The position numbers and the translations under genes were made by a program. From contig CALAGR010000288.1 in the NCBI GenBank assembly GCA_937891735.1, positions 1-56,470 of the forward strand: a DNA stretch of 56,470 nucleotides, in the 5' to 3' direction. Position 1 is the stretch's first letter; the number at the start of each line of letters is the position of its first letter. Below, piece after piece: positions 38,863 to 42,986 of the stretch. The stretch is from an uncultured Pseudomonadota bacterium (GTDB lineage Bacteria; Myxococcota_A; UBA796; UBA9615). A model generated the notes under the pieces. It was not told where the DNA came from. It made no database searches and worked only from the letters and a program-made list of their open reading frames with translations.

Positions 38863-40233
38863 CTACTCGTCGCGCTTGATGCCGAGCCGCTTGACCTTCT
38901 TGTACAGGTGGCTGCGCTCGAGGCCCAGGTCCGTCGCGGCCGCCGTCATGCTGCCCTCGAACCGCTCGATCCGCTCCTCGATCACGCGCCGCTCGTAGGC
39001 CAGCAGGATCTCCGTCAGCGTGCCCTCGGCGGGGACGTCCGCGCCGTCGGCGTGCTGGGCTCCTGCCAACGCCGCCCGCACGTCGTCGCCGCGGATCACG
39101 GGCCCACGAACCATGATCGCCAGCCGCGAGACCACGTTGCCGAGCTCTCGGATGTTGCCCGGCCAGTCGTGGCCCTGCAGGGCCCGCAGCGCGTTGTCCG
39201 ACCAGTCCTTGTCCGGCAGGCCGTTCTCCTCGATGGAGCGGGCGAGCAGGAACGCCGCCAGGGGAGGGATGTCGGCAACCCGGGCCCGCAGCGGGGGCAC
39301 CTGTATGGGCAGCACCGCGAGGCGGTAGTACAGGTCCTCCCGGAAGCGTCCGTTCGCCACCTCGGCGGCGAGATCCCGGTTGGTGGCAGCGATCACCCGC
39401 ACGTCCACCGGCACCGTCTGGGAGCCGCCCACCCGCTCGATCTCGCCCTCCTGCAGGACCCGCAGCAGCCGGGACTGCAAGGCCATCGGCATCTCGCCGA
39501 TCTCGTCGAGGAAGAGCGTCCCTCCGTCGGCGCGCTCGAAGCGCCCGAGGCGCCGTCGATCGGCTCCTGTGAAGGCCCCGCGCTCGTGCCCGAACAGCTC
39601 CGACTCCACCAGCTGCTCGGGGATCGCGGCGCAGTTCATCTTGGAGAAGGGACCCGTGGCCCGGCGGCTGGAGTCGTGGATCGCCCGCGCCACCAGCTCC
39701 TTGCCCACGCCGCTCTCGCCGGTGATCAGCACCCGGGCCCGGGTGGGGGCAGCCCGGCGCACGGCCTCGATGACCCGGGTCAGCCCCGCGGAGGTGCCGA
39801 CCATGCCATGCCGCAACACCACCGCCCGCCGCAGCGCGCCAACGTCCTTGTCCAGCCCGTCGAGCCGCAGCACGTTGCCCACGGTGATCAGCAGGCGGTC
39901 CACCTGGACGGGCTTCTCCAGGAAGTCCAGGGCCCCCAGGCGCGTGGCCTTGACCGCCGACTCGAGGGTGCCGTGGCCGCTCATCATCACGACGGGCGGG
40001 GGAGTCGGCAGCTTCTGCAGCTCCGCCAGGACCCACAGCCCGTCGTGGTCCGGAAGGCGCAGGTCCAGCAGCACGAGGTCCGGCTCGAACCGCTCCGCCT
40101 CCACCAGGGCCGTCGCTGCGTCCTTGGCGGTGGCGACGGCGAAGCCCTCGAGATCCAGCGCCCGCGAAAAGGTCGTGCGGATGTTGGGCTCGTCGTCCAC
40201 CACGAGCACACGAACGGCCCGGGGCTCGCTCAC
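38863..40233 (-). CDS. NtrC/NtrX-type sigma-54-dependent response regulator
   Basis: 456 residues from a GTG overlapping the previous stop (GTGA). The receiver domain has D13-D14 and phospho-acceptor D57 (LVLLDLRLP) and K107 (EKPV). The AAA+ domain has Walker A GESGVGKE (172-179) and the sigma-54 contact loop G219-A-F-T-G-A224, followed by an arginine-finger region (FREDLYYRLAVLP). A Fis-type helix-turn-helix ends the protein (AATDLGLERSHLYKKVKRLGI). It fits as partner of the NtrY-like kinase in the same block. The 176-nt gap after it shows no clear terminator. Confidence 0.92.
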   Translation of the reverse strand: MSEPRAVRVLVVDDEPNIRTTFSRALDLEGFAVATAKDAATALVEAERFEPDLVLLDLRLPDHDGLWVLAELQKLPTPPPVVMMSGHGTLESAVKATRLGALDFLEKPVQVDRLLITVGNVLRLDGLDKDVGALRRAVVLRHGMVGTSAGLTRVIEAVRRAAPTRARVLITGESGVGKELVARAIHDSSRRATGPFSKMNCAAIPEQLVESELFGHERGAFTGADRRRLGRFERADGGTLFLDEIGEMPMALQSRLLRVLQEGEIERVGGSQTVPVDVRVIAATNRDLAAEVANGRFREDLYYRLAVLPIQVPPLRARVADIPPLAAFLLARSIEENGLPDKDWSDNALRALQGHDWPGNIRELGNVVSRLAIMVRGPVIRGDDVRAALAGAQHADGADVPAEGTLTEILLAYERRVIEERIERFEGSMTAAATDLGLERSHLYKKVKRLGIKRDE

Positions 40234-40865
40234 TTGAACAGGTCCTCGAGCTTGCTCTTCGCCTCGGACGCCTTGTGGTTGCGCAGCTTGTACTCGACGG
40301 CCTTGTGCAGCTGGTACATCTCGTCGTCGATGCCCTGCACCACGTCCCAGTCCTTGACGTCGTCAAGGGCCTGCAGCGCCGCCCGCAAGGCCGACATCTG
40401 CTCCTTGATGACGGCCGGGTCACGGCTGGTCTCGCCCTGGTGGGTGCTGCCGCGCCCCATCTTCGCGTCCACCGCGGCCTGCAGGGCGGCCGACGACAGG
40501 TCCAGGCTCGGCTTGGGGCTCGGCGCCGGGTCGCTCGACGCGCCGTCACTCGGGGGCTCACCGGTGGTGTCGGCCTGCCGCTCCTGGCGCTTGCGCACGC
40601 GGTCGTTGTAGTTGGAGCGGGGGTTGTCCGCGAAGCCCGGCCCCTCCCGACGTACCACGGCGATGCCATCCCGGCGCACGTGGAACTCCTGGGCGCCCCA
40701 GGCCACGCGCACCTGGGGCCGCATCCCCGCGACCCAGGTCACCAGGAACGGGGCGACGGTCCTGGCGAGCCGCCCGAGCCCCCGCGCCACGGCGCCGCCG
40801 CGGGCCTTGGGGGGCGTCTGCGCGCCAGGCTTCCACATCGGATCGACAGAGCTCACATCACGCAT
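40230..40865 (-). CDS. Hypothetical protein overlapping an NtrX-like gene
   Basis: 211 residues, no family recognised. A basic N-terminal half with one weakly hydrophobic segment (VAPFLVTWVAGM) is followed by a Pro/Ser-rich middle (DGASSDPAPSPKPS) and a charged, probably coiled-coil C-terminus (YQLHKAVEYKLRNHKASEAKSKLEDLFK). ATG at 40865 lacks a clear ribosome site and a later ATG (40838) is possible. The stop overlaps the regulator's GTG, so the two are translated together. Confidence 0.55.
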   Translation of the reverse strand: MRDVSSVDPMWKPGAQTPPKARGGAVARGLGRLARTVAPFLVTWVAGMRPQVRVAWGAQEFHVRRDGIAVVRREGPGFADNPRSNYNDRVRKRQERQADTTGEPPSDGASSDPAPSPKPSLDLSSAALQAAVDAKMGRGSTHQGETSRDPAVIKEQMSALRAALQALDDVKDWDVVQGIDDEMYQLHKAVEYKLRNHKASEAKSKLEDLFK

Positions 40866-40901: not shown

Positions 40902-42986
40902 TCAGGCTGCGCGCACCTGGACCAGGACCCCCCGGAACGCGATCCCTTCCGGAAACCCCCGCAGACCGGGGGTGTCGACCGACGGCGGCGCATCGAGCAC
41001 CGAGCCCGCCATCCGGCCCCCGTCCCGCAGTCCTGCTTCCACCTGCTGGCGCAGCCAACCCGGCTTGAGGCCCTTGAGGTTGACGATGGCCAGCAGCCAG
41101 CCCCCCTCGGGCGGCAGGACCGCGGCGCAGGCGGCCACGAGGGAGCGGTAGTCGCGGCGGGCGTTCCACCCCCGAGAGCCGCCCCGCCCCCGGGCGAAGG
41201 CGGGGGGATCGAGGACCACGAAGTCGAACCGCTCCTCGGTCTGGGCCAGCCACACGTCCGAGGCCGCGGCGATCACCGGGTGCTGTGCGGGATCGAGCCG
41301 GTTGCGCAGCAGGTTCTCGCTAGTCCAGTCGCAGTAGCGGGGCGACAGGTCCACGCTGGTGGCGCGCTGCGCCCCGGCGGCGGCCGCCCGCACCGAGAAG
41401 GCTCCGGTGTGAGCGAACAGGTTGAGGACCCGGGCCCCCGGGGCGAGCCGCTGCACCATGCGCCGACGGTTCTCCCGCTGGTCGGGGTACAGCCCCGTGG
41501 TCAGCCCCGCCCAGGGGGTCACCCGGTAGGCCAGGCCGTCTTCGCGCACCACGAGCGGCGCCTTGGGCTCGGCTCCGCGCAACCAGCGACCGGGCAGCGC
41601 GTCCCCCTCCTGGCCCTGGCCTCGGGCCCGCAGGTCCTGGACGTGATCCTTCTCGTACAGCGGGCCCGCTCCAAGGGCCTCGTCCAGGGCCGTGAAGGCC
41701 GCGTGAGTCAGCTGGCTCACGGCGTGAGTGGCGCGGGTGGCCACCCGCAGATCGCCCCACTGGTCGATGACGAGGCCCGGCAGGCCGTCGGCCTCGGCGT
41801 TCACCAGGCGCAGGCAGTCCGTGGCGGGATCGTCCAGGAGGGGGCGGCGTCGCTCAAGCGCGGCGCTCACCCTGCGATGCACGTCCTCGTCGGTGATCGG
41901 CTCGGTCCTGTCCAGGGCGAGGAGCCGGGCGCAGACCGACGCCGCGGGATCGATCAGCGCCACCCCCACGGCGTCTCCGGCCTGGTCCACCAGCAGGGCC
42001 TGATCTCCTGCGGTGAACCGGCCCAGGTCGCCCGTGTCCCGATCCGGCAGCACCCAGGGGTGACCGGAGCGCAGGATCCGCGCGCTCGCCCGGCTGATCT
42101 TCAGCCGCCGCAGGGGTCCGCTGGCCGGCCGCGGGGGCGCCTGCCGTGCAGGGCGGTCGGGGAGCGCTGGGCTCGCTGGAGGCACCACCCCCTGGATCAG
42201 CTCGTCCCACCCCGCCGGGGGCGGCGCGATCACCTCGTGCCCGTCCCACCGCAGCGCCTCGCAGTGCAGCCCCAGCCGCGCCGCGCCGTCCGGCAGCGCG
42301 CGCCCGTAGACGAGGTCGCCGACGATGGGGGTGCCTGCCGCGGCCAGCTGCCGCCGCACCTGGTGGGTGCGTCCCTCCCTCGGCTCCACCGCCAGCTCGG
42401 CGCGCCGGCCGTCGGCGCTCCGCCGCAGGAGGGTCCAGGACAGGTGGATGGGCCCGCGCTCGTCCGGGTCCTCCCGTTGCCCCGCGTCTTGTAGCGGGGC
42501 CGGGCTGACGATGGCGCGGTAGGTCTTCTTGATGGCCCGGTCCGCGAACTGCGCCGCGAGGTGGGCCGCCGCGTCCCGGTCCAGGGCCAGGAGCAGCACC
42601 CCCGAGGTGCCCCGATCCAGCCGATGCACCACCAGCAGGTCCATGCCGAGGGCCTCCGGCACGCCGGTCCCGCCCTCTTCGGTGCGGTGGGTGGGCAGGC
42701 CGGTGGGCTTGTGCACCGCGAGCCAGCCGGGGCCCCGGGCGATGATGTCGGCCTCGGACAGGGAAGGGGAGTCGAGCAGGGACGGACGAAAGGACAGCTG
42801 CACGACCTCGCCGGTCCGCAGCGCGCGCCCTGCTCTCCGCTCCACCCGGTCCGCCACCCGCACCTGACCCGCGTCGAGCAAGGCCTTGATCTTGCGGCGC
42901 GAGAGCCCGGCGACGTTGGCGACGAGGAAGCGGTCGAGGCGCTCGGGTCGGGCTGGCGACGGCACTTCGAGCGTGATCTCGCGCAC
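40902..42986 (-). CDS. Fusion of RluA-type pseudouridine synthase and RlmI/RlmK-type rRNA methyltransferase
   Basis: One uninterrupted frame of 694 residues from a GTG with GGAG 6 nt upstream. Residues 1-70 are an S4 RNA-binding domain (RLDRFLVANVAGLSRRKIKALL). Residues 80-265 are an RluA-family pseudouridine synthase with the catalytic D124 in HRLDRGTSG and EGRTHQVRRQL. After a Pro-rich linker (about 265-290), residues 290-360 are a PUA-like domain (LKISRASARILRSGHPWV), then an RlmI-like methyltransferase: RLVNAEADGLPGLVIDQWG, LNLFAHTGAFS (SAM-binding) and FDFVVLDPPAF (591-597). Near the end FPEGIAFRGVLVQV matches the RlmI tail. The motif-VI position reads IVNLKGL with no cysteine, so m5C formation as in RlmI is doubtful. 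Confidence 0.88.
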   Translation of the reverse strand: MREITLEVPSPARPERLDRFLVANVAGLSRRKIKALLDAGQVRVADRVERRAGRALRTGEVVQLSFRPSLLDSPSLSEADIIARGPGWLAVHKPTGLPTHRTEEGGTGVPEALGMDLLVVHRLDRGTSGVLLLALDRDAAAHLAAQFADRAIKKTYRAIVSPAPLQDAGQREDPDERGPIHLSWTLLRRSADGRRAELAVEPREGRTHQVRRQLAAAGTPIVGDLVYGRALPDGAARLGLHCEALRWDGHEVIAPPPAGWDELIQGVVPPASPALPDRPARQAPPRPASGPLRRLKISRASARILRSGHPWVLPDRDTGDLGRFTAGDQALLVDQAGDAVGVALIDPAASVCARLLALDRTEPITDEDVHRRVSAALERRRPLLDDPATDCLRLVNAEADGLPGLVIDQWGDLRVATRATHAVSQLTHAAFTALDEALGAGPLYEKDHVQDLRARGQGQEGDALPGRWLRGAEPKAPLVVREDGLAYRVTPWAGLTTGLYPDQRENRRRMVQRLAPGARVLNLFAHTGAFSVRAAAAGAQRATSVDLSPRYCDWTSENLLRNRLDPAQHPVIAAASDVWLAQTEERFDFVVLDPPAFARGRGGSRGWNARRDYRSLVAACAAVLPPEGGWLLAIVNLKGLKPGWLRQQVEAGLRDGGRMAGSVLDAPPSVDTPGLRGFPEGIAFRGVLVQVRAA

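What the first reader, a model, noticed from the sequence alone, without database searches (positions are those of the whole stretch)
40902..42986. Pseudouridine synthase fused in one frame to an RlmI/RlmK-like methyltransferase
A single 694-residue frame carries a full S4 + RluA synthase (catalytic D124 in HRLDRGTSG) and a full PUA + class I SAM methyltransferase, joined by a Pro-rich linker and without an internal stop. In E. coli these are separate proteins (RluC/RluD; RlmI/RlmK), and I do not recall this combination. It may couple two nearby 23S rRNA modifications.
Basis: partly seen in the sequence, partly recalled or inferred. Interest (0 to 1): 0.75.

Follow-up and report, generated by a model that had tools for sequence, protein, structure and literature searches.

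The report
Pseudouridine synthase–rRNA methyltransferase fusion enzyme
One bacterial gene joins two enzymes that usually sit apart, one making pseudouridine and one adding a methyl group to ribosomal RNA; the fusion is old in its phylum (Myxococcota), and in most relatives the pseudouridine half has lost its catalytic residues, been cut down or disappeared.

Summary
It has a weak S4 hit, an RluA-type pseudouridine synthase (PUS) with D124, Y156 and GRTHQ present, a Pro-rich linker, then PUA and a class I methyltransferase. It is not an assembly error: single-frame orthologues occur in six other genomes with the PUS motifs intact and in 20 with full-length but degraded PUS halves, of 379 genomes of the phylum (Myxococcota). 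None was found in 343 Planctomycetota or 399 Pseudomonadota genomes. Trees favour one ancient fusion followed by repeated loss of the PUS half. In Bradymonas and its kin the domain remains but HRLD, KxY and GRTHQ are all gone; in others the catalytic segment is cut out, or the whole domain is missing, once at the syntenic locus in the window's own family. No split PUS gene replaces it. The methyltransferase is not RlmI-like in its chemistry: the m5C cysteine is replaced by asparagine (N636), as in E. coli RlmK. Best reading: a two-activity rRNA-modifying enzyme whose PUS half is dispensable. rRNA targets are unknown. I found no paper describing it.

The parts
40902..42986 (-). fusion gene, 694 aa (GTG start at 42986, stop ends at 40902)
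42796..42944 (-). S4-like RNA-binding domain (aa ~15-64)
   Evidence: weak Pfam hit in the window, above cut-off in orthologues L015 and L062
42339..42722 (-). RluA-type pseudouridine synthase domain PF00849 (aa 89-216)
   Evidence: active-site motifs
42600..42626 (-). HRLDRGTSG, catalytic Asp124
42513..42530 (-). KKTYRA, active-site Tyr156
42360..42374 (-). GRTHQ motif (aa 205-209)
42114..42194 (-). Pro-rich linker (aa ~265-291)
   Evidence: position inferred from domain ends
41919..42101 (-). PUA_3 domain (aa 296-356)
41046..41603 (-). class I SAM methyltransferase domain PF10672 (aa 462-647)
   Evidence: motifs NLFAHTGAFS and DPPAFA
41079..41081 (-). Asn636 at the position of the RlmI m5C catalytic cysteine
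   Evidence: invariant in the nine-member fused alignment
40230..40865 (-). conserved 211-aa protein of unknown family directly downstream, kept next to the fusion in G001 (59%) and G002 (44% over 101 aa)

Best explanation
A bifunctional RNA-modification enzyme, most likely acting on 23S rRNA. The N-terminal S4 + RluA-type domain isomerises a uridine (Asp124 as nucleophile, Tyr156 and the GRTHQ region in the active site). The C-terminal PUA + RlmK-type methyltransferase methylates a base without a cysteine nucleophile, so probably not m5C; a guanine N7 (RlmK-like) is the leading guess. One polypeptide presumably binds one stretch of rRNA, or one assembly intermediate, and carries out or assists both reactions, as RlmK+RlmL do in E. 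coli. The fusion arose once early in the phylum. The methyltransferase is the part usually kept; the pseudouridine synthase is dispensable and has repeatedly decayed into a non-catalytic, probably RNA-binding, appendage or been lost. SHOWN: architecture, motif retention or loss, distribution, trees, loss at a syntenic locus. INFERRED: catalytic activity of both halves, rRNA as substrate, proximity of the two sites, RNA binding by the decayed domain.
For: Domains. Full-length single-frame orthologues in 27 of 379 phylum genomes counting this one, seven with HRLD, KxY and GRTHQ all present (window, L014, L015, L062, L019, L055, L060). In the f16 genomes and L029/L066 these motifs are lost, so they are kept or lost as a set, which suggests selection for activity where kept. 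In the window lineage the PUS half is as conserved as the methyltransferase half (60% vs 58% to G001; 47% vs 43% to G002). Degenerate N-domains are real RluA homologues end to end (hhalign 99.4%, P 1.4e-21; reversed control P 0.4), and the partial ones align with a gap over the catalytic segment (98.3%, P 1.3e-14). Single origin: methyltransferase clade of 53 rows SH-aLRT 86; fused PUS domains one group 99/96, 78/91 with intact ones only. Same-locus loss in G003: cystathionine beta-synthase-like neighbour kept, PUS gone. Cys to Asn at motif VI as in RlmK; Cys-type enzymes form a separate starred group 97/93. The fused methyltransferase, or its solo form in G003, is the best hit of E. coli RlmK in all seven genomes tested and the only one in the two single-contig f16 genomes.
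Against: No activity or substrate data. The fused PUS is below NCBIfam's TIGR00005 cut-off (104 vs 193 bits) and the methyltransferase is below every RlmI/RlmK equivalog cut-off. By full-length score the methyltransferase is nearer RlmI than RlmK (216 vs 138 bits), and RlmK's place in the tree is unsupported (72/66). Frequent PUS loss argues against strong coupling of the two reactions. Single-origin support is moderate without the degenerate sequences. The single-sequence AlphaFold model was useless (pLDDT 35).
Confidence: 0.7

Rival explanations
1. The methyltransferase is the only physiologically important activity everywhere; even where motifs are intact the PUS half mainly serves as an S4/PUS-fold RNA-binding platform, and pseudouridylation is a minor relic.
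For: PUS loss or decay in most family members, including deletion in the window's own family (L016). RlmKL precedent: the RlmL part stimulates assembly independently of methylation (PMC11194073).
Against: All three active-site motifs are kept in seven members from four families, and the PUS half is as conserved as the methyltransferase half in the window's lineage.
Confidence: 0.2
2. Two independent fusions of RluA-type synthases to the same methyltransferase lineage (window clade and f16/f18 clade).
For: Intact-only PUS tree supports one origin only at 78/91; identity between the two clades' PUS domains is about 30%.
Against: Same order, same junction, methyltransferase clade support 86, fused PUS group 99/96 with degenerate ones included.
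Confidence: 0.12
3. A chance read-through, assembly or frameshift join of two neighbouring genes.
For: The genome is a 542-contig assembly.
Against: Same fusion in independent genomes, no stop, constant codon-position GC across the junction.
Confidence: 0.01

Closest known systems
E. coli RlmKL (YcbY), fused m2G2445 (RlmL) + m7G2069 (RlmK) methyltransferase
   Same: Two rRNA-modifying domains in one chain; C-terminal PF10672-type methyltransferase with Asn, not Cys, in motif VI
   Different: N-terminal partner is THUMP + RlmL methyltransferase in RlmKL, S4 + RluA pseudouridine synthase here; a PUA domain precedes the methyltransferase here; targets unknown
TrcP, Vibrio cholerae cytidine deaminase-pseudouridine synthase tRNA editor (PMC9553926)
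   Same: Pseudouridine synthase fused to another base-modifying enzyme, reactions likely coupled on one RNA
   Different: Partner is a deaminase acting on the same base of tRNA-Tyr; here the partner is a methyltransferase and the substrate is unknown
E. coli RlmI (YccW), 23S m5C1962 methyltransferase
   Same: PUA + PF10672 architecture, best PDB sequence match (3c0k, 130 bits)
   Different: Catalytic Cys replaced by Asn; not fused to a synthase in E. coli
RluA/RluC/RluD family pseudouridine synthases
   Same: S4 + PF00849, HRLD/KxY/GRTHQ
   Different: Forms its own branch, not orthologous to RluC or RluD; fused

Membership tests
RluA-type pseudouridine synthase (PF00849) | Pfam PF00849 above curated cut-off | tested here: met
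   83.5 vs 26.8 bits
RluA-type pseudouridine synthase (PF00849) | catalytic Asp in HRLD, active-site Tyr (KxY), GRTHQ motif | tested here: met
   D124, Y156, 205-209; aligned with E. coli RluA/C/D
RluA-type pseudouridine synthase (PF00849) | S4 domain N-terminal (RluC/RluD type) | tested here: inconclusive
   17.8 vs 22.8 bits in the window; above cut-off in L015 and L062
RluA-type pseudouridine synthase (PF00849) | NCBIfam TIGR00005 rluA_subfam cut-off | tested here: not met
   104 vs 193 bits; so a divergent PF00849 member, not filed in the TIGR00005 subfamily
RluA-type pseudouridine synthase (PF00849) | makes pseudouridine | not testable with these tools
   needs biochemistry
RlmI (23S m5C1962 methyltransferase) | PUA + PF10672 domains | tested here: met
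RlmI (23S m5C1962 methyltransferase) | catalytic Cys in motif VI (SCS) | tested here: not met
   Asn636 at that column; invariant Asn in the nine-member fused alignment
RlmI (23S m5C1962 methyltransferase) | NCBIfam RlmI equivalog cut-off | tested here: not met
   124 vs 712 bits
RlmK (m7G2069) | Asn at motif VI in place of Cys | tested here: met
   E. coli RlmK SNNKRG aligned
RlmK (m7G2069) | best hit of E. coli RlmK in its genome | tested here: met
   seven genomes
RlmK (m7G2069) | groups with RlmK in a tree / reverse best hit | tested here: inconclusive
   72/66 support; reverse score favours RlmI
RlmKL fused enzyme | THUMP + RlmL methyltransferase N-terminal half | tested here: not met
   no such domain in the protein; THUMP proteins lie elsewhere in these genomes

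The most novel reading that the evidence does not exclude
A previously undescribed dual rRNA-modification enzyme (pseudouridine + methylation in one chain), founded once in Myxococcota, in which one catalytic half has decayed several times in parallel, from active enzyme through catalytically dead full-length fold and excised active site to complete loss, in places with both halves decayed. This is a natural series for asking whether a modification enzyme's fold (RNA binding, assembly help) matters more than its product.
Probability: 0.55. Interest if true: 0.68.

Novelty: new variant of a known kind. Interest (0 to 1): 0.55.

Why it matters
Whether rRNA-modification enzymes matter for their products or for binding and folding rRNA is an open question; in E. 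coli RlmB and RlmKL act in assembly independently of methylation (PMC11194073). This family offers orthologues with the synthase half live, dead, cut down or absent on the same methyltransferase, so the question can be tested by swapping natural variants. It also adds a domain combination for which I found no description in the papers searched.

Tried and rejected
RlmI-type m5C chemistry (Cys absent). RluC orthology of the PUS half (weakest listed hit in this genome). Split-gene alternative (no close separate PUS in G003 or G080). Frameshift or assembly artefact. Fusions in Planctomycetota (343) or Pseudomonadota (399): only stand-alone methyltransferases. Plasmids: only stand-alone RlmI-like matches. 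The one scan of genome contigs used single-sequence patterns and found only distant relatives. Papers: searches gave no description of this fusion.

Full report
CHECK. Translating 40902-42986 on + gives a frame with a stop that is not the protein. On - there is one frame of 694 residues beginning GTG at 42986 and stopping at 40902. Pfam places PF00849 at 89-216, PUA_3 at 296-356 and PF10672 at 462-647, all above curated cut-offs; S4 is below its cut-off here but above it in orthologues. D124, Y156, GRTHQ (205-209) and N636 were located exactly, and codon-position GC is constant through the two halves.

NOT AN ARTEFACT. The nearest genomes carry the same fusion in one frame: G001 (58% identity) and G002 (45%); G295 has a third close one. 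In G001 the PUS half is 60% and the methyltransferase half 58% identical; in G002 47% and 43%, so both halves are similarly constrained. The downstream 211-aa gene is kept in G001 and G002, the response-regulator gene after it in G001, and a cystathionine beta-synthase-like gene lies beside the locus in G002 and G003.

DISTRIBUTION. A profile of nine fused proteins was run on 379 genomes of the phylum. Twenty-seven genomes, the window's included, have a full-length fused frame. Seven keep all three PUS motifs: the window, L014, L015, L062, L019, L055, L060. The f16 group, L029 and L066 keep the length but have lost HRLD, KxY and GRTHQ, and PF00849 no longer hits those that were scanned. Many f18 and f14 members keep only parts; others have the methyltransferase alone. 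Four f16 members (L067, L069, L076, L093) have lost methyltransferase motifs too. No fusion was seen in 343 Planctomycetota or 399 Pseudomonadota genomes or on plasmids. Other phyla were not surveyed.

THE DECAYED DOMAIN IS A TRUE RELIC. Profiles of the degenerate N-domains align end to end with stand-alone RluA-family synthases (99.4%, P 1.4e-21; reversed control P 0.4). The partial ones align (98.3%, P 1.3e-14) with a gap that removes the segment containing the catalytic Asp.

HISTORY. In the methyltransferase tree all fused or partly fused members sit in one clade (53 rows, SH-aLRT 86), with stand-alone planctomycete and other myxococcotan enzymes outside. Intact PUS occurs on both sides of its deepest fork, and L016 (no PUS) is nested among intact members. 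Fused PUS domains form one group against stand-alone ones (99/96; 78/91 with intact ones only). The simplest reading is one fusion and at least three separate losses: in L016, in f16, and in the f18/f14 lineages. In G003 the loss is at the same locus, and no separate close PUS gene exists in G003 or G080.

METHYLTRANSFERASE TYPE. At the column of RlmI's motif VI cysteine the fused family has Asn, as E. coli RlmK does; it is invariant in the nine-member alignment. Cys-type enzymes form their own starred group (97/93). E. coli RlmK's best hit in all seven genomes tested is this methyltransferase or its solo form, and the only hit in the two single-contig f16 genomes. But RlmI scores higher in the reverse direction and RlmK's tree position is unsupported. 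I therefore say 'RlmK-type chemistry likely', not 'is RlmK'. That the motif VI Cys is the m5C nucleophile in RlmI-type enzymes is recalled knowledge, not tested here. THUMP proteins (candidate RlmL or ThiI) lie elsewhere in the same genomes.

MECHANISM. Shown: architecture, motif sets, history. Inferred: pseudouridine formation by D124; base methylation without a cysteine adduct; binding of one rRNA region by S4 and PUA; sites close together by analogy with RlmKL, whose two domains act on m7G2069 and m2G2445 (PMC11194073), and TrcP, a deaminase-PUS fusion working in sequence on one RNA (PMC9553926). The PUS target cannot be named; RluC orthology is rejected. The repeated PUS loss shows the methyltransferase does not need pseudouridine formation in most lineages, and suggests the dead fold may still help binding where it is kept; that last step is untested.

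VERDICT. Real, conserved, apparently undescribed domain combination with an instructive decay series; a new variant of a known kind (fused rRNA-modification enzymes), not a new kind of system.

Noticed in passing
L067, L069, L076, L093 (f16 genomes G148, G238, G144, G246): Fusion orthologues in which both the synthase and the methyltransferase motifs are degenerate, though the frame is full-length and open; possible fully non-catalytic RNA-binding protein.
   Followed up: partly
L007:1330-2337 (window's own genome, contig C380): Stand-alone RluA-family protein with HRLG instead of HRLD (catalytic Asp replaced by Gly).
   Followed up: no
window 40230-40865 (-): 211-aa protein without any Pfam or NCBIfam hit, 36 bases downstream of the fusion and conserved next to it in G001 and G002.
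   Followed up: partly
L062 (G295, family f55): Fusion from a genome placed in another family of the phylum, yet its PUS half (55%) is closer to the window's than that of G002 in the same family (49%); horizontal transfer, mis-binning or misplacement.
   Followed up: no
L115-L121 (Planctomycetota): Stand-alone Asn-type methyltransferases that are among the nearest outgroups to the fused family; 22 of 343 planctomycete genomes have a match at the threshold used.
   Followed up: partly
L002:349-2673 (window's own genome, contig C349): Cys-type (RlmI-like) methyltransferase in a 775-residue open frame whose first ~380 residues match no Pfam family; start codon not checked.
   Followed up: no
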